Below, piece after piece: positions 1-43,555 of a stretch of 64,000 nucleotides of DNA. The first letter of the stretch is position 1. Each line of letters begins with the position of its first letter. Source of the DNA: Ariolimax columbianus. Its lineage: Eukaryota > Mollusca > Gastropoda > Stylommatophora > Arionidae. Below the pieces are notes generated by a model that ran no database searches, was not told the DNA's origin, and worked only from the letters and a program-made list of their open reading frames with translations. The position numbers and the translations under genes are program-made. The stretch is taken from positions 44,134,278 to 44,198,277 of the forward strand of contig JAVGWX010000005.1 in the NCBI GenBank assembly GCA_036924085.1. The letters run 5' to 3'.

Positions 1-1667
1 CTATGTGGACCTCTGAAAAGAATCTCACCATAGCAAGAAATCGGATGCAAACGGCCCTAACATCGCTGGAAGAGTGGGCGAACTCATGGCTGGTCAAAAT
101 AAACGAGGAGAAAACCACGTGCACAATATTCTCGCTCTCATTAAAACCCCAAAGTACCAAATTAAGCCTAAATGGCAAAATCCTGCAGCCAAACGACAAC
201 CCAACCTATCTGGGAGTCACATTTGATCGGCGCATGACATGGAAAAGTCAGATTGAGAGAAACCGAATGAAAGCCAGAGAAAGAATGGCGATCATGAGGA
301 AACTTGCTGGCACAAGCTGGGGAGCAGACGAAGGCATACTAAAGAAACTGTACACTGGAAGAGTGAGACCAGTTCTCGAGTATGGCATCGCGGCATGGAC
401 AACAGCAGCGAAGGCGAACTTCGATAAAGTTAACAAACTTCAAAACCAAGCTATGAGAATCATAACTGGTGGAATGAAGTCAACGCCAATTGTAGAACTT
501 GAAAAGATTACAAAACTGCAATCCATGACCGACAGAAGAGACTGCAGAGCCCAGCTGCAGTCAGAGAAACTCCGAAGACTGACGGACCATCCAATGTACC
601 AGAGGCTAAACAATTTGGGAACTGGGAAACTAAAGCGGAGAAACTTTGCAGAAATAGCCAAAGCAAAGATGCACGAAGATCCCATAAACGCACTAACAAC
701 ACCAAAACCCATCACTACTGTACGAAAACCTACTTGGAGGCAGGATATATTTCCAGAGGTGGTAGAAAATATACCAGGTATTGCAAACAAAAACTGCCAG
801 ACCGAAAAAGAAAGGAGAGACACTACCTTAAGCTTCATAACGAAAAGCTACCCAAGCATGGACTGGACCCATGCATACACCGACGGTTCTGTAACAAACA
901 CTACACAGAACGGAGGGGCAGGAGCATTCCTGAACCTACCAAATGGCAGAAAAATAACACTGTCATTCGCTACTGGTAAGTACACGAGCAATTTCAGAGC
1001 AGAGGCAGAGGCACTGAGGGCGGCAGTGGAAGAAATGGTAACACACAGTGAAAATGAGAGCCATATAGTCCTGCTGACAGATGCTCTCGAAGTAGTCACA
1101 GCGCTAAAAAGCCAGAAAAACACTGAGCTTAATGACTTAAGAGCAGCACTCTGCAAACTGTGCCAACAGTCCGCACCAAAAAGGGTAGTGGTACAGTGGG
1201 TTCCGTCACACTGCAACATCCAAGGCAACGAGGAGGCAGACAGACTGGCAAAAGAAGGTGCAAGGCTACCACAAATAGATACCAGTATGACGTACGAAGA
1301 GTCAAAACGGCTTATCAAAGCCAGGTACATGTCCAAATGGGAAACCGAACATACTGGTTACACCAAAAACGATGCCTATTACCAGTTGAACCGAAGAGAG
1401 CAGGTCGTTGTCTTCAGACTTCGCACTGGCCACAACAGACTGAGGTACCACCTCTTCAACAAATTGAAGATAGGGTGTACCGACGAATGCCCGTGCGGTA
1501 CTGGTAAAATGACCACTGAACATCTGCTGCAGAACTGCCCGACATACGAGGATCAGAGAGAGCAGATGTGGCCATTGCCAGTGGAACTGCAAGACAAGCT
1601 CTATGGTAGTGGCGAGAGTCTCAGGATGACCGCCGCTTTTTTCGAGAAAATAATGGTTACTGTCTGA
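1..1667 (+). CDS. LINE polyprotein, C-terminal 554 residues (RT thumb, RNase H, Cys/His motif)
   Basis: Partial ORF equal to residues 749-1302 of the intact polyprotein at 15015-18923. The first methionine at position 3 is internal: it lies just after the RT catalytic motif (FADD) of the full protein, so this is not a true start. It contains the end of the RT palm and thumb, then an RNase H domain beginning near residue 290 (YTDGS with the first acidic residue, then AEAEAL, LLTDA and a final [11 protein letters not shown] motif). A C-terminal C-x3-C-x-C-x8-H-x4-C cluster follows near residues 492-512. The reading frame is open to the stop, with no frameshift. In the full family the enzyme copies element RNA into a nicked target site (target-primed reverse transcription); here only the C-terminal half is visible. 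Confidence 0.95.
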   Translation, partial: MWTSEKNLTIARNRMQTALTSLEEWANSWLVKINEEKTTCTIFSLSLKPQSTKLSLNGKILQPNDNPTYLGVTFDRRMTWKSQIERNRMKARERMAIMRKLAGTSWGADEGILKKLYTGRVRPVLEYGIAAWTTAAKANFDKVNKLQNQAMRIITGGMKSTPIVELEKITKLQSMTDRRDCRAQLQSEKLRRLTDHPMYQRLNNLGTGKLKRRNFAEIAKAKMHEDPINALTTPKPITTVRKPTWRQDIFPEVVENIPGIANKNCQTEKERRDTTLSFITKSYPSMDWTHAYTDGSVTNTTQNGGAGAFLNLPNGRKITLSFATGKYTSNFRAEAEALRAAVEEMVTHSENESHIVLLTDALEVVTALKSQKNTELNDLRAALCKLCQQSAPKRVVVQWVPSHCNIQGNEEADRLAKEGARLPQIDTSMTYEESKRLIKARYMSKWETEHTGYTKNDAYYQLNRREQVVVFRLRTGHNRLRYHLFNKLKIGCTDECPCGTGKMTTEHLLQNCPTYEDQREQMWPLPVELQDKLYGSGESLRMTAAFFEKIMVTV

Positions 1668-1687
1668 CTGTGTACGCAGAAGAAGAA
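1..1687 (+). mobile_element. LINE copy A (rRNA-leader LINE family), 3' part
   Basis: Right-hand part of the same non-LTR retrotransposon as 11598-18950, cut by the window edge. The two align through the ORF with only about three base differences in 1.67 kb (near 831, 1320 and 1537), so they are very young sister copies. The copy ends with the family 3' UTR and a short GAA tail at about 1675-1688, directly followed by a 50-bp tandem array. Its 5' end and left target-site duplication lie outside the window. Confidence 0.95.
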
Positions 1688-1690
1688 GGA

Positions 1691-3262: not shown

Positions 3263-3511
3263 TATATCCTTGATTCTATTTTGTTTCTTATGACCATTAG
3301 TCTCCCTGTTTTATGTTTCTTCTCTCTTTTTGATATTGATCTTTGTTTATCCGTCTAGAAGACTGGCGCACGCATCAGTTATAATCTCATTATTTGTTTT
3401 CTCTTCGCTACCATTTCTCTAGAATGCATCTTCCAGTATTTTATTTCTTTATTATTTTTTCCAATGCTGTCTGGCTACCTCTCCAGCCCTCTCTCATTTT
3501 AAATGACTATG

Positions 3512-10686: not shown

Positions 10687-11597
10687 CTTAACTTAACTTA
10701 ACGTTTTTATACTGGTTTAGAAGACCCTGCAGAGTCTGTATACAACCAGTTACAATTACATCACCTTGCTCTAAAAGCTATGCGCATACAGTTTATTCTT
10801 AAATGCATTAACTGTCCCTGCCTCCACTACCTCCCCTGGCAATGCATTCCAAGCAGAGACCACTCTCTAACTAAAAAAATATTTTCTAATATCTAACCTG
10901 GACCTCTCTTTAGTCAGCTTGTAGCTATGCCCTCGTGTTATTGTAGGTGGCTGTATTTTAAAAAACTTGTTATATTCTAATTTATCGATTCCTCTGATCA
11001 TCTTATAAACCTGTATTAAGTCACCACGAATTCTTCTCTCTTCGAGACACTGTAGGCAGGTTTTTCTGAGTCGTTTCTCATAACTGTAATTCTGGAATCC
11101 CACTATCATCTTTGTCGCTCTTTTTTGTATTCTTTCTAGCATGTTTATGTCCCCTCTATGATAAGGACTCCACACCTGTACACAGTACTCCAATCTAGGT
11201 CTAAGTAAAGCTTTATACAGTTTGACGATCACTTCCTTGCTCCTATGTTTAATATTTCTTTTTATCATACCTAACATTGCATTTGCCTTTTTCACTGCTA
11301 CCTTAACTTGCTCACTCACCTTTCCTATATGATCTATTATAACCCCTAGGTCCCTTTCCTTATCTATCTTTCTAATATTGTTTTCTCCCATTCTGTAATT
11401 ATGTTCCATATTGGATCTACCCATGTGGAGGACTGTACATTTATCTACACTAAACTCCATTTGCCAGCTTACAGACCATTCTCGAATTTTATCTAAATCC
11501 GACATCAATTTATCCACTTCCACTTTAGATGAGACACTACTGCATAGTTTTGTGTCATCAGCAAATTTTGCAATCATGGATCTCATATCAATGTCCA
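10687..11597 (-). pseudogene. CR1 element, 3' part (RT from FADD to C-terminus and tail)
   Basis: Left half of a minus-strand CR1 element interrupted by LINE copy B. It begins with DIDMRSMIAKFADDTKL (catalytic Asp pair near 11555-11565) and continues through the thumb to the C-terminus. The frame is open from 11598 to 10867, where a Gln codon present in the 6271-7512 copy has become a stop. It ends with the ttaag repeat at 10687-10705. The missing N-terminal part resumes at 18951. Confidence 0.93.
11585..11597. repeat. Left target-site duplication of LINE copy B
   Basis: atatcaatgtcca, exactly repeated at 18951-18963. Removing one copy and the insert restores a continuous CR1 reading frame (INDLDI joined to DMRSM). 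Confidence 0.95.
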
Positions 11598-12227
11598 TCT
11601 GGGGTAGTTGTCTCGCTGCGGCGACTCAATTTCAACCAGTGTTCGTAAAGCGATCTCAGTCCCGCCAGGCGGAGCGATAGCGCGGGCTTGCGGAAAACGC
11701 TCGCCTGCCTTTCCCCGTAGTGCGAATTGGGTGCGGTTTGTGGTAGTGGCTCCTCCACCGAGGTGCGCTAGTCTGGTCCGTATCAGGAAACGTGGTCCGT
11801 CCGTGGTGATTTATCTAAGGCTTATAGCAGAGCTCGACAGTACGTCTCGCTGGTGGTCCGACTCTCGCAAAGAGCTTGTGACCGGCAAATGGAAAGCAGG
11901 AATCGTTGCCTCGAGGCCCTGCGTTCTCCCTACGGAGGAGAAGGGCAGGCCAAATTGTGTCTCTAGTCCCAGTGAAATTCATCGCCGAGGTCGTTGGGAT
12001 CCGTTCTGCACAGAGCGCTGCCATCCCTCCTCGAGCGAGCCCGGTCGGTCGGTCGTCTGGTGCGTGTGGGAGGCCCCTGTCAGGCGGTCCTAGGTCGACG
12101 GAGTGAGGGACGGGTGGAACAAACCGTCCGTCCCGTCAGTCGGTCCCTGCGGCCGTCGTCCCAGCGAGGCTTTTTACACACCCTTCCTCCGCCGACCGGT
12201 GTGTGCTGTACGTACGTCTCCGACAGA
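11598..12227 (+). other. Presumed 5' external transcribed spacer of pre-rRNA, captured in LINE B
   Basis: GC-rich, non-coding, and continuous with the 5' end of 18S in the correct orientation, as a pre-rRNA 5' ETS would be. The insertion's first base (tctggggtagttg) may correspond to the Pol I start site, since target-primed copies of a full transcript begin at its 5' end. ETS sequences are not conserved, so identity is inferred from position and composition only. Confidence 0.6.
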
Positions 12228-13388
12228 TATCTGGTTGATCCTGCCAGTAGTCATATGCTTGTCTCAAAGATTAAGCCATGCAAGTTCACACTGTCTCACG
12301 GTGAAACCGCGAATGGCTCATTAAATCAGTCGAGGTTCCTTAGATGACACGATCCTACTTGGATAACTGTGGCAATTCTAGAGCTAATACATGCTTACCA
12401 AGCTCCGACCCTCGCGGAAAGAGCGCTTTTATTAGTTCAAAACCAATCGTCGTTTCCCCTCGCGGGGTTGCGGCGTCCCCACTGGTGACTCTGGATAACT
12501 TTGTGCTGATCGCATGGCCTCATGTGCCGGCGACGCGTCTTTCAAATGTCTGCCCTATCAAATGTCGATGGTACGTGACATGCCTACCATGTTTGTAACG
12601 GGTAACGGGGAATCAGGGTTCGATTCCGGAGAGGGAGCATGAGAAACGGCTACCACATCCAAGGAAGGCAGCAGGCGCGCAACTTACCCACTCCCGGCAC
12701 GGGGAGGTAGTGACGAAAAATAACAATACGGGACTCTTTCGAGGCCCCGTAATTGGAATGAGTACACTTTAAACCCTTTAACGAGGATCTATTGGAGGGC
12801 AAGTCTGGTGCCAGCAGCCGCGGAAATTCCAGCTCCAATAGCGTATATTAAAGTTGTTGCAGTTAAAAAGCTCGTAGTTGGATCTCAGGCGCAGGCGGGC
12901 GGTCCGGCTCGCGCCGGTTCACTGCCCGTTGTCTCCTGCCCTACCGTCTGCCGGCTCTCTCCCACGGGTGCTCTTCGCTGAGCGTCCTGGGTGGCCGGCG
13001 CGTTTACTTTGAAAAAATTAGAGTGTTCAAAGCAGGCCTCGGCTGCCTGAATAATGGTGCATGGAATAATGGAATAGGACCTCGGTTCTATTTTGTTGGT
13101 TTTCGGAACTGGAGGTAATGATTAACAGGGACAAACGGGGGCATTCGTATTGCGGCGTTAGAGGTGAAATTCTTGGATCGCCGCAAGACGAGCTACTGCG
13201 AAAGCATTTGTCAAGAATGTTTTCATTAATCAAGAACGAAAGTCAGAGGCGCGAAGACGATCAGATACCGTCGTAGTTCTGACCATAAACGATGCCGACT
13301 AGCGATCCGCAGGAGTTGCTTCGATGACTCTGCGGGCAGCTTCCGGGAAACCAAAGTGTTTGGGTTCCGGGGGAAGTATGGTTGCAAA

Positions 13389-13437
<49 letters not shown>

Positions 13438-13461
13438 GCGGCTTAATTTGACTCAACACGG
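12228..13461 (+). rRNA. 18S rRNA, 5' part (pseudo-copy inside LINE B)
   Basis: Begins at the universal start (ctggttgatcctgccag at 12231) and is collinear with metazoan 18S through the 530-loop region, V4 and the helix ending gactcaacacg at 13460. It is then replaced by diverged 18S/28S mosaic. It is not a functional gene: the 3' third is missing, and about 7 bases are deleted after gccatgca (near 12280). A base of the universally conserved 530 loop is also changed (12824, a where t is expected in cggtaattcc). Variable regions look gastropod-like, close to pulmonate 18S from memory. Confidence 0.93.
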
Positions 13462-14028
13462 CCAACACTGAAATGATTGACATGCCGAGACCACTCTTCT
13501 GGAGTCTAACATGGAACTGGTGCTGGACTTAGACCCCCAGAATCTGGGGTTATGTCCCCTGTGGCTCGGTTTTGTCTGCATCCAGTGTTTGATAAAGGAA
13601 TTGACGGAAGAGCACTATCAGGAGTGGAGCCTGAGACCTAAGTTAACTTACCACGCCAATACTGCAGAATGACTATCAAAAAGTACACCTTAGTGGGGTC
13701 TAATAGAGAACATGTGCTGGAATTAGACCCTCGAAAATCTTTGGGGCTACCCTTTAAGAAACTTGACTATCTCGCTAAGGGAATTGACGAAAGGGCACCA
13801 CCAGGTGTGGAACCTGCGGCTTAATTTGACTGAACACGCCAATGCTGTAGAACAACTGACAAATTGAGAGCGCTGCCGTTTGGGTCTAATAATGAACGTA
13901 CGCTGGTATTAGACTCACGGACGACAAGTCAGCTCAAATGAAAGAACGCTACGGAAATCGTGTTTAACTCCGCAGATTTCAAATACCTGGTCATTGACAA
14001 ACAAAAGCCCTCAATAAATTCGTCTGAC
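13399..14028 (+). repeat. Tandem 18S-28S chimeric units in the LINE B leader
   Basis: Three units start at 13399, 13594 and 13777 (periods about 195 and 183). Each opens with the 18S segment ggaattgacggaagggcacc...cttaatttgactcaacacg. It continues with diverged, internally deleted 18S (aatgattgaca...gagagc), then jumps to a 28S domain VI segment (gtctaatagagaacatgtgc...attagacc). Unit 3 carries extra 28S-like sequence up to about 13965. LINE C has a matching arrangement at 22429-22740. Confidence 0.85.
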
Positions 14029-14498
14029 CAAATAGTGAACGGGTGCTGGAAATAGATCTGAAGACAGGTCAGTTTTACCCTACAAATGACAGGGCGTTGC
14101 TACGGAAAACCAGCTCAAATCGAGAGGAGCCGCAGACACTTTGGTTCACGTACCAGGCTGATAAGCCAAGGGCGCGAGGCTACCATGTGGGGGATTACGG
14201 CCGAACCCTTGAAAGCCGCAATCCCGCCCAAAATCTCAGCACCACTGCAATGGGAGGCTCCTACATGCTCGGGACCTGGGGCTTGCGCCCCAGCCCTATC
14301 AGGTAGAGCCACAGTAAGAGGTCCTTGCCGCCCGCAAATCAAAGCGGGCGGAAAACTGCTTGATACTCACCCTATACGGCGATGGGGTGCGAAAAACACC
14401 AACCAAAGACTTAGAACCTGGTCGGGGTGTTGAAAACAGTAGAGCAGCCACCACACTGTGAACTGTCAAGACTCAACCACTGACCATGAGAGTTGTCC
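14029..14498 (+). rRNA. 28S rRNA 3'-terminal fragment inside the LINE B leader
   Basis: Collinear with 28S domain VI to the mature 3' end. Recognisable blocks are aatagtgaacgggtgctgg, gacaggtcagttttaccct, gagaggagccgcagac, gattacggccgaaccc, tggtcggggtgttg, agagcagcc and gagagttgtcc at the end. It is diverged from a functional 28S (for example cgaacccttgaaag where cgaacgcctctaag is expected), so it is a pseudo-fragment. The homologous segment in LINE C is 22847-23320 and is closer to normal 28S. Confidence 0.85.
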
Positions 14499-15014
14499 GC
14501 ACACCAGGCGATCAACATCTCTGTGACATTACCAGGCTTGTCCTCTGGCTAAATGCACTCCGGTTACGATATCTACCTCTGTACGTTATCAGCCATAACT
14601 ATCATGCTGGACGCAGAAGAGATGCAGACCAGCGGACATTGCACACCTGCCCCACTGTGTCAACACCCCAGGTGGCGGGGAATGCTAGGCGTACCATCCC
14701 TGCATAGAAGCCAAGAAAATAAAGGGAAAAAGAGATACCCCACTCACATGCAAATGCTACGTTTCTGGCAGGACGTGACGATCCTGGGATACAGACACAC
14801 TGGACTGCCTCTCTTCCGGGTAAACCAGCCCATCTCATATATCACATACCATCATTGCACCCTATAGACACGAGTAGTGAAGACTCGATAGTCTGGAAAG
14901 ACAACTTCCATAGGAGAGAAAACTCTGATCGTAAACAACTGCTGCCTTGCAGATAGGCTGGGGACAGCCAAAGGCTAAGGAGGGCATCCCTACAGAAACG
15001 CCTGTTGAAATCGG
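14499..15014 (+). other. Unassigned leader between 28S fragment and ORF of LINE B
   Basis: About 515 bp conserved with LINE C (23321-23841) but not recognised. It could derive from rDNA spacer downstream of 28S or be native element sequence. Small frames here do not match between the two copies, so no ORF1 is supported. Confidence 0.5.
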
Positions 15015-18000
15015 ATGCACGGGGCCGCAAGCCTAACAAAACAGTGCAACGTAAATCACAGTATGATGGCAGCACAACCTATTCGAAAAACGTATGGCGC
15101 TCATCCTGAGGAGACCCGCCAGGCAGCGATAGCGCCGGGCCTCACGCCTCGAAGGGGCCCACCCTTGACTACTGGTGGTCACCCACCCATGTGTCGTGGA
15201 GTCAAGGCACATGGCTATGGGGTAACGTCTATTGGCCAAAACTTCAAGACCCTCAGAATACTACAGTGGAATGCGGAGGGAGTCATTAACAAAAAACTTT
15301 CCCTAACACACCACCTGCATGAAGGTAAGATTGACGTGGCATGTATCCAGGAAACGCACCTCAACAATAACCATAAATTCTCAATCAGAGGATACCAGAC
15401 CTTCCGTCTAGATAGAGAAGGTCACAAAGGAGGGGTCCTGATACTGACCAGAAACAGCATACCGAGTAGCGCGGTACCTGTCAATCACACCGGACAAGCA
15501 GAAATTGTAGGAGTTGACATAATGGCTCTAGAGACGAAACTCCGCATTTTCAATCTGTACGGACCACCAAACAGAGACCTATCGCTCTCGAGTATGGAGG
15601 TCAGAGACTCCAACTGCATAGTAGTTGGAGATTTCAACAGCCACTCGGAGAGATGGGGATACTCTGACACAGACAGTAGAGGTGACGAAGTGGAAGATTG
15701 GGAGATAGATGCAAATCTCTCCCTAATCAATAGGCCGGAGGATAGCCCTAGCTTCTATTCAAGAACATGGCATACCACCTCGACTCCAGATTTGGCCTTC
15801 TCCACACAGGACATACACTATAAAATAGACCGCCAGGTGCTAAACCAACTGGCAGGTAGCGACCACAGGCCGATCAGGCTAACCATTGACATGGAAGTAG
15901 GCCCACAGGAAACAAAACCGCTCCCACGTTGGAATTACAAACGAGCCGACTGGGACAGATTTGCAATCCTGACAGATGGGCTGTGTGAAACCATCAACAC
16001 ACGAAACACCAAAATGAAGCCCATGGTAGAGAGCCTAAGCAAGGCAATAATGCAAGCCGCCACTGAAACCATCCCAAGAGGAGCTAGGAAAAACTATAAG
16101 CCCTACTGGAATGATGAGTTACAGAAAGTGGAAGATGCAGTAACTAATGCGAGGAACATGGCAGAACGAGAAAAATCCGTGGAGGCAAACATCGCCCTCA
16201 AAGCCGCCGCGGCGAAGTACAAACACACTCTCAAGCAAACAGCAAGAGAAAGTTGGAAAAATAAAACGGAAAGTTTAAACCTGGACAAAGAAGGGAACAA
16301 GCTATGGAAGCTAGTCAGAGCCATGAACGACGAAACCCCGTCAAATAAACAAATTACTATCAAGCAAGGCGAGAACTTGATCACAGGTAAGAAAGCCGCA
16401 AACGCCTTTGTCGATCACTATGCCAGAGCAAACCACATCGAGGTCCCTGCAGATAAGCATACAGACATTAGCGAAGAGCTAAAGGGGCACGAAAACATAA
16501 ATACGGCTCCTGAAGAGCACATGATGGCCAAACTAACAATGCGCGAAATGGAAGAGGCTATGAGAACACTAAAGAGAAGGAAATCTCCCGGAAAAGACGG
16601 GATAACAAACGAAATGCTGATGGGGCTGGGCCAAACAGCGAAGGAAAAACTACTATCAGTCCTGAACCAAAGCTGGAAAAGGGGTATTGTACCCCAGGCA
16701 TGGAAAGATGCAATACTGGTACCAGTACCAAAAACAGGAAAGGACAAAACAGATCCGAATGGATACAGGCCCATAAGCCTACTGAGCTGTGTCGGCAAGC
16801 TGATGGAACGGATGATAAACACCAGACTGATGTGGCATCTGGAAGAAAAACGAATACTAATTCCACAGCAAGCCGGCTTTAGACAGCACAGATCCACTGA
16901 GGACCAGGTCATCCTCATAGCCCAGGAGATAGAAGATGCCTACCAGGCACAGAAACACACAGTAGCTGTTTGGGTGGACCTGGAAAAGGCATTTGACAAA
17001 GTCTGGAAGGATGGACTTAGAGTCAAGCTAAGAAGAAGTGATGTTTGTGGGAAGATGTACAAGTGGATCAACCACTACCTCAAACAAAGAACGGCCAGAG
17101 TCCAAGTACAAGGGCAGATGAGCAAAAAGGTGACACTCGAGCAGGGAGTACCCCAAGGGGGAGTACTGTCACCCACACTCTTCCTGGTATATATAAACGA
17201 TATTACAGAGAATATACCAAGAAGAGTCCATAGCTCAATGTTTGCAGACGATCTGGCTATGTGGACCTCTGAAAAGAATCTCACCATAGCAAGAAATCGG
17301 ATGCAAACGGCCCTAACATCGCTGGAAGAGTGGGCGAACTCATGGCTGGTCAAAATAAACGAGGAGAAAACCACGTGCACAATATTCTCGCTCTCATTAA
17401 AACCCCAAAGTACCAAATTAAGCCTAAATGGCAAAATCCTGCAGCCAAACGACAACCCAACCTATCTGGGAGTCACATTTGATCGGCGCATGACATGGAA
17501 AAGTCAGATTGAGAGAAACCGAATGAAAGCCAGAGAAAGAATGGCGATCATGAGGAAACTTGCTGGCACAAGCTGGGGAGCAGACGAAGGCATACTAAAG
17601 AAACTGTACACTGGAAGAGTGAGACCAGTTCTCGAGTATGGCATCGCGGCATGGACAACAGCAGCGAAGGCGAACTTCGATAAAGTTAACAAACTTCAAA
17701 ACCAAGCTATGAGAATCATAACTGGTGGAATGAAGTCAACGCCAATTGTAGAACTTGAAAAGATTACAAAACTGCAATCCATGACCGACAGAAGAGACTG
17801 CAGAGCCCAGCTGCAGTCAGAGAAACTCCGAAGACTGACGGACCATCCAATGTACCAGAGGCTAAACAATTTGGGAACTGGGAAACTAAAGCGGAGAAAC
17901 TTTGCAGAAATAGCCAAAGCAAAGATGCACGAAGATCCCATAAACGCACTAACAACACCAAAACCCATCACTACTGTACGAAAACCTACTTGGAGGCAGG

Positions 18001-18923
18001 ATATATTTCCAGAGGTGGTAGAAAATATACCAGGTATTGCAAACAAAAACTGCCAGACCGAAAAAGAAAGGAGAGACACTACGTTAAGCTTCATAACGAA
18101 AAGCTACCCAAGCATGGACTGGACCCATGCATACACCGACGGTTCTGTAACAAACACTACACAGAACGGAGGGGCAGGAGCATTCCTGAACCTACCAAAT
18201 GGCAGAAAAATAACACTGTCATTCGCTACTGGTAAGTACACGAGCAATTTCAGAGCAGAGGCAGAGGCACTGAGGGCGGCAGTGGAAGAAATGGTAACAC
18301 ACAGTGAAAATGAGAGCCATATAGTCCTGCTGACAGATGCTCTCGAAGTAGTCACAGCGCTAAAAAGCCAGAAAAACACTGAGCTTAATGACTTAAGAGC
18401 AGCACTCTGCAAACTGTGCCAACAGTCCGCACCAAAAAGGGTAGTGGTACAGTGGGTTCCGTCACACTGCAACATCCAAGGCAACGAGGAGGCAGACAGA
18501 CTGGCAAAAGAAGGTGCAAGGCTACCACAAATAGATACCAGTATGACGTACGAAGAGTCAAAACGGCTTATCAAAGCTAGGTACATGTCCAAATGGGAAA
18601 CCGAACATACTGGTTACACCAAAAACGATGCCTATTACCAGTTGAACCGAAGAGAGCAGGTCGTTGTCTTCAGACTTCGCACTGGCCACAACAGACTGAG
18701 GTACCACCTCTTCAACAAATTGAAGATAGGGTGTACCGACGAATGCCCGTGCGGTACTGGTAAAATGACCACTGAACATCTGCTGCAGAACTGCCTGACA
18801 TACGAGGATCAGAGAGAGCAGATGTGGCCATTGCCAGTGGAACTGCAAGACAAGCTCTATGGTAGTGGCGAGAGTCTCAGGATGACCGCCGCTTTTTTCG
18901 AGAAAATAATGGTTACTGTCTGA
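15015..18923 (+). CDS. LINE polyprotein: AP endonuclease, reverse transcriptase, RNase H, Cys/His motif
   Basis: Intact 1302-codon ORF. Endonuclease at about residues 80-290: QWNAEGVI at 84, QETHL (Glu113), VVGDFNSH (Asp206, Asn208) and GSDHRP (Asp283, His284), the residues expected for metal-dependent nicking. RT at about 490-800: [27 protein letters not shown] (Asp655), [14 protein letters not shown] and FADD (Asp745, Asp746). RNase H at about 1035-1170: YTDGS (Asp1042), AEAEAL, LLTDA and [13 protein letters not shown]-terminal cluster C1240, C1244, C1246, H1255, C1260 may bind zinc and nucleic acid. All catalytic residues seen are present, so the protein could be active. The start is the first ATG after the stop; residues 1-80 are poorly conserved in copy C, so a later start is possible. 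It should perform target-primed reverse transcription of its own RNA. Confidence 0.95.
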
Positions 18924-18950
18924 CTGTGTACGCAGAAGAAGAAGAAGAAG
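18924..18950 (+). other. LINE B 3' UTR and GAA-repeat tail
   Basis: Very short 3' end (ctgtgtacgcagaagaag...) closing in GAA repeats at the target-site duplication. The same tail closes A (about 1675), C (26580-26595), D (28062-28078, minus) and the stub at 60455. A distant form ends the fragment at 43318-43555. The 3' repeat probably primes on target DNA, as microsatellite tails do in related LINEs. Confidence 0.85.
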
Positions 18951-18963
18951 ATATCAATGTCCA
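18951..18963. repeat. Right target-site duplication of LINE copy B
   Basis: Exact 13-bp repeat of 11585-11597. Confidence 0.95.
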
Positions 18964-21290
18964 AATCATTTATATATATCAAGAACAAAATTGGTCCATA
19001 AACCGAGCCCTGTGGCACACCACTTTTCACTTCACACCACTCAGAGTACTCCTTATTTATGCCCACCCTCTGCCTTCTTCCCGTTAACCAATTTTCAATC
19101 TATTTGGCAACTTCCCAACCTATTCCATGTGATTTTAACTTTCGAAATAATCTTTGATGAGGTACTCTATCAAAGGCCTTTCCAAAGTCTAGATAAATAG
19201 CATCCACTGGCTCCCCTTTATCTATGATTTTAGTAACCTCCTCCATGAATTCTAATAGATTTGTTAAGCATGATCTCCCTCTAGTAAACCCATGCTGACT
19301 ATTTCTAATTAGATTAAATTTGTCTAAATGCATTACAATGTTTTCTTTGATTATTGACTCTAACAATTTACAGACTATGCTCGTTAAACTCACCGGTCTA
19401 TAATTTGCTTGATCTGATTTTCTGCCTTTTTTTAATAAGGGGATCACTCCTGCATCTTTCCAATCCCGTGGAACAATCCCTTTTGTCAGTGATTGAGAAC
19501 ATAATATAGCCAATGGTTTTGCTAGTTGGTCTCTAATTTCATACAGCAATTTTGGATAAATACCATCTTGACCTGGACATTTATTCCCTTTCAACCCCTC
19601 CAATTTTTAAAAAACCATTTCCTCTGTAATACAGATTGATCTTAATCCCGCTGTATCCATGTCTCTTTGAAAAATATCTATAGGCTCTGGGATCTTGGAG
19701 CAGTCCTCTTTTGTGAAGACTGTGCCAAAGTACTGATTGAGCCGATTAGCTGCCTCCCTATTCTCACTTATTATTTTCCCTGTATTGTCTATGAGAGGGC
19801 CTACTTTGTCTTTCGTTCTTTGTTTATTTCTAACATAAGAGAAGAAGCTTTTACTGTCAGTCTTGATCCTGAGCAAATTTTTTTTCAGTCTATTTTTGCT
19901 GTTTTATTCGCTTTCTGAGATATGTTCTGCTTTTCCAAATATTTTACATATGTTTCTTTTTATTTTCCTGCCTCTATATATTTTTTCCATGCTTTATTTT
20001 TTGCTCTTCTACATTTCACTACAAATCTAGTTATCCACTTTTTACGCTTTGGGTTTACCTCCCTACATGGAACACATTCCTCTTTTAGCGTTTCTAGAAC
20101 TGTTTTAAAACTTTCCCACTCCTGTTCAACATCTGTTCCTACGACAATATCTTTCCAGATTATGTGGTTCGCTGCCTCTTTCATCCTCTTAACATCTGCC
20201 TTAGAGTAGTCGTATGTTCGCGTGTTTATGTTTACTTCTTTCCCTGCAATAAGATCCCAACGGATGATTTGATGGTCACTTGAGCCAAACAGTTCCCCAA
20301 TGGTAACGTTTTCAATCATATTTTCCTCTGTGGTAAAAACTAGGTCGAGAATGTTTTTGCCCCCATGTGGCTGCTTCTACATGTTGCATTAAAAAATTGT
20401 CAGTTATGCACTTAACAAAAGGTTTTGACTCTACAAGTGCTTCTGCCATATCCCATTTTATTTCTGGATAGTTAAAATCTCCCATTAATAATAATTTCCC
20501 TTCACTTGCCTTTGCTATGCTACTAATCAGCTCCTCATCTTCCTCTTTTTGACTTGGACTTCTATAGCACACTCCAATGACTGTTTTTTCACCCCCCACT
20601 TGCTATTTCTCCCCATACACTTTCATTTTTGTTACCACATGATAAATAATCTTTGATCGTTATATTAACAGAATTTATACAGTATAATAAAACGCCACCT
20701 CCCTTAATCTTGTCTCCAATTATCCTATCTTTCCTTAACATTGTATATCCCTCAATTTCAAGTTCACTATCTGCAATCTCCTCATATGTCCATGATTCTG
20801 TTTACCCTATTATATCTGGTTTTTCTTCTTCTACATGCAGTTCCAATTCTTCTCTTGTATTTACTTTGCTTCTCATATTTGCATAAAAACATTTTAGTTT
20901 GTAATGTTGTTGGTTTACCTCTTTTTGCTTCTGCTTTATCATTGTAGTGTTTGCTTTTACACTATGTATTTCCCACTTCCCTGACACCAACTTACCTCTT
21001 TGACTACTTCCTCTATAGCACCCTATTATAGGCCTATCTTTAGTCTCATATTTCCTAGGCCTTAATAGTTTAAATTTCTAACATAATGATAGAACATATA
21101 ATTTGCTACAACATGCTGTCCTATCTCATTTAGATGTAAACCTCCCCAATCTAACATTTTACTTTTGTCTACTTTAACATCCATAAATTCCATTCCCATA
21201 TCCGCACACGTGCAAGACACTCTTGATATTCTTAACAGCCATAATAGCACGTTACAATACAAAGACATCGTATTTCTAATTCATATTCCA
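18951..21290 (-). pseudogene. CR1 element, 5' part: esterase end, endonuclease and RT N-terminal half
   Basis: Second half of the CR1 element broken by LINE B. Minus strand in order: an SGNH-type esterase C-terminus at about 21268-21062 (CADMGMEFMDV then GLHLNEIGQHV, the His-containing block V); endonuclease start at about 20905-20802 (LKCFYANMRS then KPDIIG). Next come endonuclease GDFNYPEIKWD near 20465-20490 and GSSDHQIIRWDL near 20260-20290; then RT ([41 protein letters not shown]). Several frame breaks separate the blocks, and an in-frame stop lies in the RT near 19100. CR1 elements are known to encode an esterase domain, which supports the clade. The 5' end is truncated near 21290. Confidence 0.88.
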
Positions 21291-22046: not shown

Positions 22047-22200
22047 GCGCGAAAGTCGGAGGCACGAAGACGATCAGATACCGGATAGTTCTCACCATAA
22101 ACGATGCCGACTAGCGATCCGCAGGAGTTGCTTCGATGACTCTGCGGGCAGCTTCCGGGAAACCAAAGTTTTTGGGTTCAGGGGTAAGTATGGTTGCAAA

Positions 22201-22249
<49 letters not shown>

Positions 22250-22428
22250 GCGGCTTAATTTGACTCAACACGGGAAAACTCACCCGGCCCGGACACTGTA
22301 ATGATTGATAGATTGATAGCTCTTTCTTGATTCGGTGGGTGGGGGTGCATGGCCGTTCTTAGTTGGTGGAGCGATTTGTCTGGTTAATTCCGATAAGGAA
22401 CGAGACTCTAGTCTATTAAATATTTCGA
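22047..22428 (+). rRNA. 18S rRNA fragment at the 5' end of LINE copy C
   Basis: Collinear with 18S from the cgaaagtcagagg region through agactctagtctattaaat. It includes the segment gaaaactcacccggcccgg that the chimeric units lack. A few differences from normal 18S (for example accggatagttctcacc) mark it as a pseudo-copy. It covers a different interval from the 18S part of LINE B. Confidence 0.92.
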
Positions 22429-22846
22429 CAATTTGATTCAACACGGCCAACACTGAAATGATTGACAGACCGAGAGCACTTTCGTAGGGTCTAATATGAA
22501 ACGGGTGCTGGATTTAGACCCTCAAAAATCTGGGGCTAAGCTCTCTGTGGCTCGATTGGCCTGCATTCAGTGTTCGATAAAGGAATTGACGGAAGGGCAC
22601 CACCATGAGTGGAGTCTGCGGCTTAATTTGACTCAACACGTCAATACTGTAGAACGACTGACAAATCGAGAGCACTTTCGTTGGGTCTAATAGTTAACGT
22701 GTGCTGGTATTAGACCCACGGAAGACAGTTTTTTAACCTCTTAATGAAAGATAGTGTGCTACGGTAATATTGTTTTAACCCTGCAGAAATCGCAGGTTCC
22801 AGACTCCTGGTCATTGACAAACTAAAAACCCTCTATTGATTCGTCC
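22429..22846 (+). repeat. 18S-28S chimeric units in the LINE C leader
   Basis: After 18S position 'attaaatatttcg' the sequence jumps back to tttgattcaacacgg. It then continues aacactgaaatgattgacag...gagcactttcg and on to 28S-like gtctaatatgaaacgggtgc...tttagacc. A second unit starts at 22579. The order and junctions match copy B units, so the chimera predates both copies. Confidence 0.85.
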
Positions 22847-23320
22847 GGTCTAATAGTGAACGGGTACTGGTAATAGACTCTCGGAAGACAGGTCAGTTTC
22901 ACCCTATTAATGACAGGGCGTTGCTACGGTAATCCTGCTCAATTCGAGAGGAGCCGCAGACATTTGGTTCACGTACTAGGCTGATAAGCAAATGGCGCGG
23001 GGCTCCAATGTGAGGGATTACGGCCGAACGCCTCTAAGCCGGAATCCCGCGCAAAATCTCAGCTCCACTGCGATGGGAGGCTTCGATATGGTCGGGACCT
23101 CGGGCTCGCGGCTTAGCCCCACCCGGTCGAGCTGCAGAAAGAGGTCTCTGCCGTCCACCGATCAAAGCGGGCGGGTAGCTGCTCGATATTCACCCCATAC
23201 GGCGATGAGGTGCCAAACTACCAACAGAAGACTTAGTTCTTGGTCGGGGTGTCGTAAACAGTAGAGCAGCCACCTCACTGTGAACTGTCGAGACTCAGCT
23301 CCTGACCATGAGATATGTCC
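22847..23320 (+). rRNA. 28S rRNA 3'-terminal fragment inside the LINE C leader
   Basis: Closer to genuine 28S than its homologue in copy B: attacggccgaacgcctctaa, gatcaaagcgggcgg, cttggtcggggtgtcgtaa, gtagagcagccacctc and an end near gagatatgtcc, which aligns with the mature 28S 3' end. Pseudo-fragment. Confidence 0.88.
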
Positions 23321-23841
23321 GCACACCAGGCGAACATCTCCGTGACATTACCAGGCTTGTCCCCTGGTTAAATGCACTCATGCCTCGATCTCTACCTCTG
23401 TGTGCTATCAGCCATACCAATGGACGCAGAAGAGATGCAGGCTAGCGGACATTGCACATCTGCCCTATTGTATCAACTTCCCAGGTGGCGGGAAATGCTA
23501 TGCGTACCATCACTGCAGAGAAGCCGAGAAAATAAAGGGAGCAATGAGATACCCCACTCACATGCATGTGCTACGTTTCTGGCAGGACGTGACGATCCTG
23601 GGATACAGACACACTGGACTGCGTCTCTTCCTGGTTAGTACAATCCAGTACATAGTCCATATCATATCTCATATATCACCACTGCACCCTATAGACACGA
23701 GTAGTGAAGACTCGTTAGTCCTGTAAGACAACTTTCATAAGAGAGACACCTCTGATCAAAAACAACTGCTGCCTTGCAGATAGGCTGGGGACATCCAAAG
23801 GTTAAAGAGGGCATCCCTACAGAAACGCCTGTTGAAATCGT

Positions 23842-26560
23842 ATGCACTGGGCCACAGGCTTAACGAAACAGTGCAACGTATATCGCAGTATGATGACAGT
23901 ACAACCCTTCAGAAAAAAAGAATGGCGCTCATCCTGTGGAGTCCCGCCAGGCAGCGACAGTTTCGGGCCTCACGCCTCGAAGGGGCCCACCCTTGACTAC
24001 TGGTGGTCACCCACCTATTTGTTGTGGAGTCGAGGCACATGGCAATGGGAAAAATCTATTAACCAAAAACACAAGACCCTCAGAATACTACAGTCGAATG
24101 CGGAGGGTGTCATTAACAAAAAACTCCCCCTAACATATCACTTCCATGAAGGTAAGATTGACGTGGCATGTATCTAAGAAACGCACCTCAACAACAACGA
24201 CAAATTCTCAATCAGAGGATACCAGGCCTTCCGTTTGCATAGAGAAAGTCACAAAGGAGGGGTTCTGATACTGACCCGTAACTGCATACCCAGTAGCATC
24301 TGTCAATCACACCGGACAAGCAGAAATTGTAGGAGTTGACATAATGGCTCAAGGGACGAAGATCCTTATCTTCAACCTGTACGGACCACCAAACAAAGAC
24401 CTATCGCTCTCGAGTATGGAAGTCAAAGATTCACCCTGCATAGTAGTTGGAGACTTCAACAGCCACTCGGAGAGAAGGGGATACTCGGACACAGACAGCA
24501 GAGGTGACGAAGTGGAAGATTGGGAGATAGACACAAATCTCTATCTAATCAATAGGCCGGAGCATAGCCCTAGCTTCTATTCTAGAACATGGCATATCAC
24601 CTCTACTCCAGATTTGGCCTTTTCCACGGTGGACATTCATCATAAAATAGACCGTCAGGTGCTAAACCAATTGGCAGGTAGCGACCACAAGCCAATTAAG
24701 CTAGAAGTTGAAATGGAAGTAGGCCCACATGAAACAAAACCGCTCCCACGTTGGAATTACAAACGAGCCGACTGGGACAGATTTGCAAGCCTGACAGATG
24801 GTCTGTGTGAAACCATCAAAACACGGAATAACAAAATGAAGCCCATGGTGGAAAGCTTAAGCAAAGCAATAATGCAAGGTGCCACTGAAACCATCCCAAG
24901 AGGGGCAAGGACAAATTATAAGCCCTATTGGAATGATGATTTGCAGAAAGCGGAAGACGCAGTCACAAATGCTAGGAACATGGCAGAGCGAGAACAATCG
25001 AAAAAAACGAGGAAAAAACAACATGTATAATATTCACGTTATCAAGCAAACCCCAAAATACCAAATTAAGTCTCAACGGTAAATTCCTGCAGCCAAACGA
25101 CAACCCAAACTACCTGGGATTCACATTTGATCGGCGCATGACATGGAAAAGTCAGATCGAGAGAAACCGAATGAGAGCCAGAGAAAGAATGGTAATCATG
25201 AGGAAACTTGCTGGCACAAGCTGGGGAACAGAAGAAAGTATACTAAAGAAACTGTACACTGGAAGAGTGAGACCAGTTTTCGAGTATGGCATTGCGGCAT
25301 GGACAACAGCAGCAAAGGCGAACTTCGATAAAATTAGCAAACTCCAAAACCAAGCCATGAGAGTTATAACAGGAGGCATGAAGTCAACGCCAATTGTAGA
25401 ACTTGAAAAGATTACAAAACTGCAATCCATGACCGATAGAAGAGACTGCAGAACCCAGCAGCAATCAGAGAAACTAAGAAGACTGACTGACCATCCAATG
25501 CACCAGAGACTAAATAATTTCGGAAATGGGAAACTAAAGCGGAGAAACTTTGCAGAAATAGCCAAAGCAAAGATGCACGAAGATCCCATGAACGCACTAA
25601 CAACACCAAAGCCCATCCCTACTGTACGAAATCCTACCTGGAGGCAGCATATATTTCCAGAGGTGGTAGAAAATATACCAGTTATTGGAATCAAAAATTG
25701 CCAGACTGAAAAAGAAAGAGCGATACTACCCTGAGCTACATAACAAAAAACTACCCAAGCATGGACTGGACCCATGCATACACCGACGGTTCTGTAACAA
25801 ACACAACACATAACGGAGGGGCAGGAGCATTTCTGAACCTACCAAATGGCAGAAAAATAACACTGTCATTCGCTAATGGAAAATACACAAGCAATTTCAG
25901 AGCGGAGGCAGAGGCACTGAGGGCGGCAATGGAAGAAATGGTGACAGATAAGAGGAATGAAAGCCATATAGTCCTGCTTACAGATGCCTTTGCCGTAGTC
26001 ACAGCACTAAAAAGCCAGACAAATACTGAACTTAATGATTTAAGAGTAGTACTCTGTCAACTATGCCAGCAGTCCACACCAAAAAAGTGTAGTGGTACAG
26101 TGGGTTCCATCCCACTGCAACATCAAAGGCAACGAGGAGGCAGACAGACTGGCAAAAGAAGGTGCAAGACTACCACAACCAGATACTAGTATGACATACG
26201 AAGAGTCAAAACGGCTTATTAGAGCTAGATACATGACCAAATGGGAAACTGAACATACTGGCTACACAAAAAACTATGCCTAATTACCAGTTGAACAGAA
26301 GAGAGCAGGTCGTGGTCTTCTGACTTCGCACTGGCCACAATAGACTGAGGTACCACCTATTCAACAAATTGAAAATAAGTTGGCACTGACGAATGCCCGT
26401 GTGGTACCGGGAAAATTACCGCTGAGCATTTGCTGCAAAACTGCCCGACATACGAGGATCAAAGAAAGCACTTGTAGCCATCACCAGTAGCAACACTAGA
26501 CAAGCTCTATGGCAGTGCCGACAGCCTAAGGATGACCGCTGCTTTTTTCGAAAAAATATA
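23842..26560 (+). pseudogene. LINE copy C polyprotein, disabled
   Basis: Homologous to the 15015-18923 ORF. There is an in-frame stop at 24175-24177 in place of the Gln of QETHL, and a frameshift near 24300. The endonuclease middle part is open at 24344-25000 (GDFNSH and GSDHKP present). A deletion near 25005 joins residue about 385 to about 783 and removes the whole RT catalytic region, including FADD. Further frameshifts occur near 25730 and 26090, and stops near 26281. RNase H blocks (YTDGS, LLTDAF) and the Cys/His tail remain recognisable. It cannot be active. Confidence 0.9.
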
Positions 26561-26595
26561 GGTTGACGTTTCACAGCGTACGAAGAAGAAGAAGA

Positions 26596-26960
26596 AGATG
26601 GTCTGGCATGCCCGGAAATGGACAGCCAGAGGCTGATAAGTAGATTGGACAAAGTAGCACAGAACTTTGGCATGGAGATAAATGGAGAGAAAAGTTACAT
26701 TTCACCGCCAACTAAGTAGCGGAACTCATATTGTGCCAATATGTATAATCATGCCCCACGTAGAGAAATACAAGAAATTCACGATCCAATACACAACAAA
26801 TCACTCTTGGGAGTGATCATTTCACAGAATGCTGCCCTGAAACCAACTGCATATACATCGTTGATTCTCGAACACGCTATTATAGTTGCACTGATAATTG
26901 ACACATGCATGTTTCGTTATTTAGTTAGCCATCGAATGTTACGTTTCAAATGAATTTCTC
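26596..26960 (+). pseudogene. RTE-like RT, right part after LINE C
   Basis: Resumes the RT interrupted at 22046: DGLACPEMDSQRLISRLDK then FGMEINGEKS to about 26695. It then decays into non-coding sequence. The right copy of the target duplication is 26596-26606. Confidence 0.65.
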
Positions 26961-27360: not shown

Positions 27361-27638
27361 GACGGGGGAGCCGCGTAGCGCAGTGGTTAGCGCGCTGGCT
27401 TCGCATCTGAGTAGTCCTGGGTTCTTTCCCCAGTTGAGGCGGTAATGTTTGTTTTCAGACCGCAATGGCTCCATGGTCGACCCAGCCTTAAATGGGTACC
27501 GGTTCAGTCTGGGAAGTAAAAGCGGCGAGGGAGAGGAGATGGCGTCCGCCCTCATATAGCCGAGCCTTTGAAATGTGAGATCGCTAACACCCCACACCCC
27601 TACGGCAGTAATGCTATGAGATACTTTACTTTACTTTT
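27361..27638 (+). mobile_element. tRNA-derived SINE (family S2), well preserved
   Basis: tRNA-like head: agccgcgtagcgcagtggtt (A box at about 27377-27390) and ctgggttctttcccc (B-box position, 27417-27431). The body contains aaatgggtaccggttcag and gagcctttgaaatgtgag, and the end is actttactttact. A more diverged copy is at 30981-31195. Confidence 0.8.
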
Positions 27639-28049: not shown

Positions 28050-28061
28050 ATGTTGAAGTCC
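28050..28061. repeat. Left target-site duplication of LINE copy D
   Basis: atgttgaagtcc, exactly repeated at 29539-29550. Confidence 0.9.
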
Positions 28062-29538
28062 TTCTTCTTCTTCTTCTGCGTACACTGTCAGACAGTAACC
28101 ATTATTTTTTCGAAAAAAGCGGCGGTCATCCTGAGACTCTCGCCACTACCATAGAGCTTGTCTTGCAGTTCCACTGGCAATGGCCACATCTGCTCTCTCT
28201 GATCCTCGTATGTCGGGCAGTTCTGCAGCAGATGTTCAGTGGTCATTTTACCAGTACCGCACGGGCATTCTTCGGTACACCCTATCTTCAATTTGTTGAA
28301 TAGGTGGTACCTCAGTCTGTTGTGGCCAGTGCGAAGTCTGAAGACAACGACCTGCTCTCTTCGGTTCAACTGGTAATAGGCATCGTTTTTGGTGTAGCCA
28401 GTATGTTCGGTTTCCCATTTGGTAATGTACCTGGCTTTGATAAGCCGTTTTGACTCTTCGTACGTCATACTGGTATCTGTTTGTGGTAGCCTTGCACCTT
28501 CTTTTGCCAGTCTGTCTGCCTCCTCGTTGCCTTGGATGTTGCAGTGTGACGGAACCCACTGTACCACTACCCTTTTTGGTGCGGACAGCTGGCACAGTTT
28601 GCAGAGTGCTGCTCTTAAGTCATTAAGCTCAGTGTTTTTCTGGCTTTTTAGCGCTGTGACTACGGCGAGAGCATCTGTCAGCAGGACTATATGGCTCTCA
28701 TTTTCACTGTGTGTTACCATTTCTTCCACTGCCGCCCTCAGTGCCTCTGCCTCCGCTCTGAAATTGCTTGTATACTTACCAGTAGCGAATGACAGTGTTA
28801 TTTTTCTGCCATTTGGTAGGTTCAGGAATGCTCCTGCCCCTCCGTTCTGTGTAGTGTTTGTTACAGAACCGTCGGTGTATGCATGGGTCCAGTCCATGCT
28901 TGGGTAGCATTTCGTTATGAAGCTTAGGGTAGTGTCTCTCCTTTCTTTTTCAGTCTGGCAGTTTTTGTTTGCAATACCTGGTATATTTTCTACCACCTCT
29001 GGAAATATATCCTGCCTCCAAGTAGGTTTTCGTACAGTAGTGATGGGTTTTGGTGTTGTTAGTGCGTTTATGGGATCTTCGTGCATCTTTGCTTTGGCTA
29101 TTTCTGCAAAGTTTCTCCGCTTTAGTTTCCCAGTTCCCAAATTGTTTAGTCTCTCGTACATTGGGTGGTCCGTCAGTCTTCGGAGTTTCTCTGACTGCAG
29201 CTGGGCTCTGCAGTCTCTTCTGTCGGTCATGGATTGCAGTTTTGTAATCTTTTCAAGTTCTACAATTGGCGTTGACTTCATGCCACCTGTTATAATTCTC
29301 ATGGCTTGGTTTTGAAGTTTGTTAACTTTATCGAAGTTCGCCTTCGCTGCTGTCGTCCATGCCGCAATGCCATACTCGAGAACTGGTCTCACTCTTCCAG
29401 TGTACAGTTTCTTTAGTATGCCTTCGTCTGCTCCCCAGCTTGTGCCAGCAAGTTTCCTCATGATCGCCATTCTTTCTCTGGCTTTCATTCGGTTTCTCTC
29501 AATCTGACTTTTCCATGTCATGCGCCGATCAAATGTGA
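28062..29538 (-). mobile_element. LINE copy D, 5'-truncated, minus strand
   Basis: GAA tail (read as ttcttcttc on the plus strand) at 28062-28078, then the family 3' UTR and the last 477 codons of the ORF. It is cut at the RT thumb region (ends next to catgcgccgatcaaatgtga). The 12-bp perfect duplications at 28050-28061 and 29539-29550 show a single target-primed insertion with incomplete reverse transcription. Confidence 0.95.
28088..29538 (-). pseudogene. LINE copy D polyprotein fragment (thumb, RNase H, Cys/His)
   Basis: Open from 29521 to the stop at 28088. It is nearly identical to the C-terminus of copies A and B, with a handful of replacements (for example LPQTDTS for LPQIDTS, GCTEEC for GCTDEC, ARYITKW for ARYMSKW). 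RNase H motifs YTDGS, AEAEAL, LLTDAL and [11 protein letters not shown] are intact. It has no endonuclease and no RT catalytic site. The first ATG is internal. Confidence 0.93.
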
Positions 29539-42990: not shown

Positions 42991-43317
42991 GAGGTTGCCA
43001 TCCCGATGTACACCTAAATTTAGTGGGCTTACTAGTTCCTTCTAAAACAAAATAGAGATCCCGAGTTCCATACTGAAGACCACAAGTTGAGGGAAAAACA
43101 ATATCTGTTTTAGTCGTCGTCTGCTTATTATCTTCTTCTCAATGCGAATCACGCATGCGCGATCATTGTCAGTTGACTCTTAACAGGAGTTAACCACCAA
43201 ACAGGAAATGTCAGCAAATGGTTTAGTTGCTTCCGTAGCGACCTGTTTGACACGATAAAGTCACAATCCACACTTCAACCCTCATGTAGTAGCTTATAAT
43301 GGAGTGATTTTTATCTG
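42991..43317. other. Spacer, nothing recognised
   Basis: No support for a gene or repeat. Confidence 0.35.
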
Positions 43318-43555
43318 TATAAGTTTAAGATTGGCACTACAGACCTTTGTGCATGCGACACAGCCCCCATGAAGGCAGAACATATTTTGCAGTCCTGTTC
43401 ACTGTATACCGACAAAAGAAGTAGCATTTGGCAACAGCCAGTGTCCTTCCACGAGAAGCTGTACGGAAGAGTACAGAGCCTTGAGTCGACTGCTGCCTTT
43501 GTTAGAGTCATTGAAGTTGATATCTGAAGACGAACGAGAAAGAAGAACAAGAAAT
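43318..43555 (+). pseudogene. Distant relative of the rRNA-leader LINE, 3'-terminal fragment
   Basis: Frame YKFKIGTTDLCACDTAPMK then AEHILQSCSLY and LYGRVQSLESTAAFVRVIEV to a stop at 43525. It aligns with the last ~70 residues of the LINE polyprotein ([39 protein letters not shown]), including the Cys/His cluster except its first Cys. The sequence after the stop (gacgaacgagaaagaagaac) parallels the GAA-type tail. Protein identity is far lower than between A, B, C and D, so this is a separate, older subfamily. Confidence 0.75.

What the first reader, a model, noticed from the sequence alone, without database searches (positions are those of the whole stretch)
11585..18963. A LINE whose single insertion event carries a 5' ETS-18S-28S ribosomal leader
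A perfect 13-bp target duplication brackets 7353 bp that begin with presumed pre-rRNA spacer, run through 18S, a mosaic, and a 28S end, and finish with an intact EN-RT-RNase H ORF and GAA tail. The two halves of the disrupted CR1 gene join in frame when the insert is removed. The rRNA part and the ORF therefore arrived as one RNA-derived unit. That suggests transcription from an rDNA (Pol I) promoter, or capture of rRNA by template switching, followed by mobilisation outside rDNA.
Basis: partly seen in the sequence, partly recalled or inferred. Interest (0 to 1): 0.93.

Follow-up and report, generated by a model that had tools for sequence, protein, structure and literature searches.

The report
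LINE launched from host ribosomal transcripts
A jumping gene present in thousands of copies begins its full copies with the start of the host's own ribosomal RNA transcript, and that start appears to be taken afresh from the ribosomal genes instead of being inherited with the rest of the element.

Summary
In detail: a perfect 13-bp duplication brackets a 7.35-kb insertion in a CR1-type LINE, whose frame is open across the rejoined site. It is not a one-off: the genome holds 4,074 exact copies of its 18S/LINE junction. Of 20 unique insertions read, 13 begin at or within 7 nt of one nucleotide, the one where similarity to a host rDNA unit starts, just after a TATATT motif: the presumed +1 of pre-rRNA. 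The leader is host 5'ETS plus 18S nt 1-1240. It does not descend with the body: 18S has 0 shared variants in 1,233 columns, UTR+ORF 43 in 4,423, and ETS variants conflict freely with body variants. Two of 17 ETSs equal an rDNA unit; the rest differ from the nearest of 14 units by 4-27 columns. L055 preserves an element end running into 18S nt 1385; copy 2 starts after 18S nt 1394: an implied 18S insertion site with a 10-bp duplication. Best reading: an R-element-like LINE copied from Pol I co-transcripts and pasted genome-wide, with jumps onto pre-rRNA. No element-bearing rDNA unit was found, so RNA-only template switching remains a serious rival.

The parts
11585..11597 (+). left 13-bp target-site duplication (its last A may be the first base of the element, presumed pre-rRNA +1)
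11598..12227 (+). host 5' external transcribed spacer, from presumed pre-rRNA +1
   Evidence: 11597-13461 = L038 1270-3144, 98.7%
12228..13461 (+). host 18S nt 1-1240 (this copy: 2 substitutions and a 6-nt deletion against the host unit)
13462..14030 (+). mosaic: monomers with degenerate 18S and, less surely, 28S pieces; varies with the body
14031..14494 (+). degenerate 3' end of 28S, to LSU model position 3399 of 3401
14495..15014 (+). remaining 5' UTR of the element body
15015..18923 (+). single intact ORF, 1302 aa: EN - RT - RNase H
18924..18950 (+). 3' end with (GAA)n tail
18951..18963 (+). right 13-bp target-site duplication
10867..11584 (-). interrupted CR1-type LINE, one half
18964..19603 (-). 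interrupted CR1-type LINE, other half (RT region)
22050..22427 (+). 18S leader of the older copy 2, ending at host 18S nt 1394
22428..26598 (+). body of copy 2 (about 80-89% to copy 1 by stretch, internally deleted)
1..1688 (+). 3' part of another copy, 99.8%, cut by the window start
28061..29538 (-). 5'-truncated copy, 98.0%, 12-bp TSD

Best explanation
It is a LINE that uses the host's rRNA genes as its launch pad. SHOWN: copies at unrelated sites start at one nucleotide, where rDNA similarity begins; their 18S equals the host's while their bodies differ; leader and body are unlinked. INFERRED: that nucleotide is the Pol I start; elements inserted in 18S (nick before nt 1385, 10-bp duplication to nt 1394) are transcribed from it by Pol I; the co-transcript, with its rRNA leader, is translated and reverse-transcribed at dispersed sites. 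Dispersed copies lack the upstream promoter and would mostly be dead ends, so each new copy shows the ETS of whichever rDNA unit held its source. During reverse transcription the enzyme often jumps to other pre-rRNAs. The mosaic and 28S tail would be older captures of this sort, fixed in the 5' UTR. The main junction (18S nt 1240) would come from re-pairing at AATTTGA(C/T)TCAACACGG, present in 18S and at the body's 5' end.
For: Common 5' end: 10 of 20 unique insertions start at the same base and 3 more 2-7 nt later. rDNA similarity begins there; the unit upstream reads GGAATGTATATT. Against one host unit, 18S has 0 substitutions in L014, L020, L028, L032 and 1 each in L021, L026, L029, L030. 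Shared variants: 18S 0/1,233; ETS 11/624; UTR+ORF 43/4,423 (Fisher 5.8e-6 and 4.5e-5). Four-gamete conflicts: ETS-mosaic 41/84, ETS-5' body 105/324, but mosaic-5' body 3/189. L018 and L022 have the ETS of 6 of 14 rDNA units; copy 1, L014, L019 and L020 share variants with unit L041. L055: element end ...GAAGAAG then 18S nt 1385 onward, inside one 15-bp TSD; copy 2's 18S ends at nt 1394. Nick-site table of 15 insertions: T at -2 in 14, purine at +1 in 15, A at +3 in 11; the 18S site fits.
Against: No element-bearing rDNA unit was seen; the exact 3'-junction pattern has one match in the genome, L055 itself, on a large contig. The 18S site rests on two loci, and L055 could also arise by a jump from 18S onto an element RNA's 3' end. 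Jumps onto ETS-bearing pre-rRNA do occur (L052, L053, L054, L057), so co-transcription is not needed to explain +1 starts. Only 2 of 17 ETSs equal any of the 14 units read; the others differ from the nearest by 4-27 columns; 9 of 17 carry a base seen in none of the 14; and the 26-nt-shorter ETS of 7 of 14 units is in 0 of 17 copies. The body is not free of conflicts either (126/903 body-body pairs, 32/301 mosaic-body). The nick table's -1 and +1 columns are partly forced by taking the longest match beside a purine tail. No transcript data.
Confidence: 0.55

Rival explanations
1. RNA-only capture: the element is transcribed elsewhere from its own promoter, and its reverse transcriptase switches template onto nucleolar pre-rRNA, usually at the shared stretch AATTTGA(C/T)TCAACACGG, then runs to the pre-rRNA 5' end. 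No rDNA residence is needed.
For: Of seven loci chosen for holding 18S 3' sequence, five show a pre-rRNA segment joined to the body or back to another 18S piece: at 18S nt about 1739 (L053) and 1796-1799 (L052), in the spacer after 18S (L054, L056) or in 5.8S (L057, recognised by eye). The main junction lies in a stretch shared by 18S and body. Human L1 forms 28S chimeras, 18 cases (PMC13174262, passages).
Against: The same junction is present exactly 4,074 times. Copy 2 and L055 bracket one 18S site by 10 bp, and it fits the nick table. The short ETS of 7 of 14 units is never sampled (0 of 17). Of 26 insertions with a determined start (19 of the first set, 7 of the second) none starts at the mature 18S 5' end, though mature 18S should be the commonest acceptor; but the real jumps seen also went to ETS-bearing pre-rRNA, which weakens this point.
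Confidence: 0.37
2. The leader was captured once and is now inherited as an ordinary 5' UTR, transcribed from a promoter inside it.
For: Exact junction in 4,074 copies; L018 and L022 share one deletion; most ETSs are not identical to any of 14 rDNA units read.
Against: 18S has no shared variants among 13 copies, ETS and body are unlinked, and 18S equals the host's.
Confidence: 0.06
3. Assembly chimera or chance adjacency of an rRNA pseudogene and a LINE.
For: None found.
Against: One TSD around the whole, CR1 frame open across it; 13 of 20 unique insertions start at or within 7 nt of the same base at unrelated sites; 4,074 junctions.
Confidence: 0.01

Closest known systems
R1 of the Drosophila melanogaster group (PMC2718515, passages)
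   Same: rDNA-resident LINE; insertions outside 28S carry upstream 28S sequence (7-28 bp) taken as a sign of rRNA in the transcript
   Different: Here the leader is about 1.87 kb and reaches the presumed pre-rRNA +1; the implied site is in 18S; thousands of dispersed copies; RNase H domain
R8 of Hydra, R2 clade (PMC5035012, passages)
   Same: a LINE lineage inserted in 18S genes
   Different: R8 is placed in R2 there; this ORF has an endonuclease/exonuclease/phosphatase-type EN ahead of RT
L1-28S rRNA chimeric insertions (PMC13174262, passages)
   Same: rRNA joined 5' of a LINE, mostly in sense, inside one insertion
   Different: 18 sporadic 28S fragments of 50-482 nt there; here one fixed junction, 4,074 exact copies, leader from presumed +1
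EN-RT-RNase H LINEs (I, R1, LOA, Tad1 and similar; clade names recalled)
   Same: domain order; C-terminal CCHC-like motif seen by eye
   Different: clade not determined; no ORF1 noticed

Membership tests
rDNA-specific R elements | insertion at one fixed rDNA site | tested here: inconclusive
   L055 3' junction at 18S nt 1385 and copy 2 5' junction at nt 1394 imply one 18S site; the exact 3' junction occurs once in the genome, on C17, away from the rDNA array contigs; thousands of other copies
rDNA-specific R elements | expression as rRNA co-transcript | tested here: inconclusive
   copies start at presumed pre-rRNA +1 with host ETS+18S; no RNA data
R2 clade | restriction-like endonuclease after RT (feature recalled) | tested here: not met
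   EN of the Exo_endo_phos type lies before RT
R2 clade | 5' HDV-like ribozyme | tested here: not met
   no ribozyme family at Rfam gathering score in the window; PMC5035012 ascribes it to some R2 families only (passage)
R1 clade | RT phylogeny within R1 | not tested
   no reference LINE proteins could be retrieved; PDB hits only show LINE-type RT
LINE with EN-RT-RNase H | domain set and order in one ORF | tested here: met
   PF14529/PF03372, PF00078, PF00075 in order
LINE (TPRT) | TSDs, 5' truncation, fixed 3' end | tested here: met
   TSDs of 11-15 bp in 15 insertions; 6 of 20 unique insertions 5'-truncated; common GAA end
sporadic LINE-rRNA chimera | one-off event with variable junction | tested here: not met
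   4,074 identical junctions, though other junctions also occur

The most novel reading that the evidence does not exclude
A high-copy LINE whose only effective promoter is the host's Pol I promoter: it persists in a few 18S genes, sends out ETS-18S-element RNAs that insert genome-wide as promoterless copies, renews its 5' leader from rDNA in every round, and builds its 5' UTR from successive rRNA captures.
Probability: 0.45. Interest if true: 0.92.

Novelty: new variant of a known kind. Interest (0 to 1): 0.84.

Why it matters
R elements are thought to stay in rDNA, and dispersed LINEs to carry their own promoter (general knowledge). Here thousands of copies carry the same 18S junction, and those read in full carry a sample of the host's pre-rRNA start. 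That points to the Pol I start site from DNA alone, records ETS haplotypes of rDNA, and makes two questions directly testable: how Pol I RNA becomes a translated LINE message, and how a LINE leaves rDNA.

Tried and rejected
Rejected: assembly chimera; one-time capture inherited as a fixed 5' UTR. At first the 18S leader looked decayed, because this copy differs from positions shared by unrelated 18S genes, but most of those states proved to be the host's own. Low mosaic/28S divergence among copies was not used, because the query that found the copies lay there.

Led nowhere: ORF relatives and a 60-base 18S motif in viral contigs; 18S in phage records. I found no paper describing a LINE family with a pre-rRNA leader (searches; 107 was swamped by the word 18S and 126 returned nothing; listings and abstract starts only, apart from passages of three papers). 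The LINE clade was not placed. Genome-wide counts of +1 starts and of the copy-2-type 5' junction did not complete.

Full report
What is there. At 11598-18950 sits an insertion with a perfect 13-bp TSD inside a CR1-type LINE whose frame is open for 288 codons once the flanks are joined in a script. In order it holds host 5'ETS, 18S nt 1-1240, a mosaic, the 3' end of 28S, a 5' UTR, one EN-RT-RNase H ORF of 1302 aa and a GAA tail.

A family, not an event. A query from the mosaic/28S part gave 40 scored hits of 1,157 candidates. I read 20 of the 39 other hits, taken in list order. L015 is the same insertion as L014 with its flanks, which leaves 20 unique insertions with the window copy. Thirteen start at or within 7 nt of window 11598, six are 5'-truncated (L016, L023, L024, L025, L027, L031), and one (L017) is interrupted and cut. 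Nine of the thirteen have the main 18S/body junction; L018, L019, L022 and L033 have deletions reaching or crossing it. The exact 33-nt junction occurs 4,074 times, 2,035 forward and 2,039 reverse, against 0 for the reversed control. A frame of 1,304 codons or more is open in 16 of 19 copies checked, L015 included. So this is a large and recent family.

The 5' end is the presumed start of pre-rRNA. All ten copies that start at 11598 have A before it. In L020, L021, L026, L029 and L032 the TSD stops one base short, so that A belongs to the element; in copy 1, L014 and L028 it is ambiguous, and L018 and L019 have no clear TSD. Host rDNA was found with an 18S probe; contig C222 has hits 12.28 kb apart. 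Window 11597-13461 equals L038 1270-3144 at 98.7%, starting at that A; just upstream the unit reads CCCCCGGAATGTATATT. That this base is the Pol I start is inferred from the coincidence, not measured. Two odd copies start 3-5 nt further up (L057, L054).

The leader is renewed. Among 13 copies, 18S has 0 shared variant columns in 1,233, 6 singletons and mean pairwise difference 0.09%; ETS has 11 shared in 624 and 0.77%; ORF 38 in 3,909 and 0.68%. Against one host unit the 18S stretch is identical in L014, L020, L028 and L032 and has one substitution in L021, L026, L029 and L030; copy 1 has two plus a 6-nt deletion. L019 has none in the part it keeps. L018 and L022 score 2 and L033 scores 8 in that pairwise alignment; the multiple alignment shows none in the part they keep, so I take these as alignment effects of their deletions. 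L018 and L022 (one body group) share an ETS free of substitutions with L026, L028 and L032 (another group), though their bodies differ by 0.75-0.92%. Four-gamete conflicts are rare between mosaic and 5' body (3 of 189) and within the 5' body (15 of 351), and common across the leader boundary (ETS-mosaic 41 of 84; ETS-5' body 105 of 324). Over the whole body they rise (body-body 126 of 903, mosaic-body 32 of 301), so bodies exchange too, but less; ETS sites conflict among themselves (27 of 66). The Mantel test for association of ETS and body gives r 0.25, p 0.07: some association is possible. The 14 rDNA units read fall into three ETS types (6, 7 and 1 units). L018 and L022 are identical to the first; copy 1, L014, L019 and L020 share variants with the third. 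Against a simple reading, the other 15 of 17 copies differ from their nearest unit by 4-27 alignment columns, 9 of 17 carry a base seen in none of the 14 units, and the second type, 26 nt shorter, is in 0 of 17. Sources in unread rDNA units, or older haplotypes, must be assumed.

Where the element may sit when it is transcribed. Copy 2 in this window, an older relative, has 18S running to host nt 1394 and then the body. L055 holds, inside one 15-bp TSD, a body 3' part ending GAAGAAG, directly followed by 18S from nt 1385 onward into the spacer, then a second body 3' part. The simplest template is a read-through RNA from an rDNA unit with the element in 18S; the two junctions overlap by AAATAGTTCG, as a 10-bp TSD would. 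Fifteen insertions with clear TSDs, L055 among them, show T at -2 in 14, pyrimidine at -1 and purine at +1 in 15, A at +3 in 11, and the 18S site meets all four. The -1 and +1 columns are partly forced, since I took the longest match beside a purine tail; the T at -2 is not. But the exact 3' junction is found only at L055, and no array copy was seen.

Template jumping. Seven dispersed loci chosen because they hold 18S 3' sequence: L052 (+1 to nt about 1796-1799, then 911-1240, then body), L053 (+1 to 1739, then body 48), L054 (from just above +1 into the spacer, then body 24), L056 (18S and spacer, then 763-1240, then body), L058 (18S and spacer, then after a further stretch body 54), L055, and L057 (from just above +1 into 5.8S by eye, then back to 18S; no body in the stretch read). 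They are a biased sample. In the first set L018, L019 and L022 share one landing point (12782) with two departure points. So the enzyme moves readily between pre-rRNAs.

Age layers. The mosaic varies with the 5' body, and mosaic and 28S tail are degenerate and occur in copy 2 too. They look like earlier rRNA captures, the 28S one ending within 2 nt of the model's 3' end, as an end-to-end jump would leave.

Judgement. That the leader is host pre-rRNA and does not descend with the body is well supported; that the normal route is Pol I co-transcription from 18S-resident elements is the better of two live mechanisms (0.55 against 0.37).

Noticed in passing
L014 and L015 (G000 C3): The same insertion with the same TSD and flanks occurs twice about 0.5 Mb apart: segmental duplication or haplotype duplication in the assembly.
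   Followed up: partly
L039-L051, ETS: Host rDNA units fall into three ETS types; 7 of 14 units (L038 included in the 14) share a 26-nt-shorter ETS that none of 17 element copies carries.
   Followed up: partly
window 12782, loci L018, L019, L022: Recurrent landing point of internal jumps in the 18S leader, as if an rRNA fragment with a fixed 3' end were the acceptor.
   Followed up: partly
window 43309-43524: Fragment 47% identical to the C-terminus of the ORF: a second, more distant LINE family.
   Followed up: no
L017 623-3118: A copy interrupted by another insertion of about 2.5 kb.
   Followed up: no
L001 (Blastococcus), L002 (Coleofasciculus MAG), L003 (Planomonospora), L004 (Dehalococcoidia MAG), plasmid record NZ_CP050525.1: Eukaryotic rRNA sequence sits in these prokaryote records, so they look contaminated.
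   Followed up: partly
window 27371-27430: tRNA-like head of a possible SINE (seen by eye); ARAGORN called no tRNA in the window.
   Followed up: no
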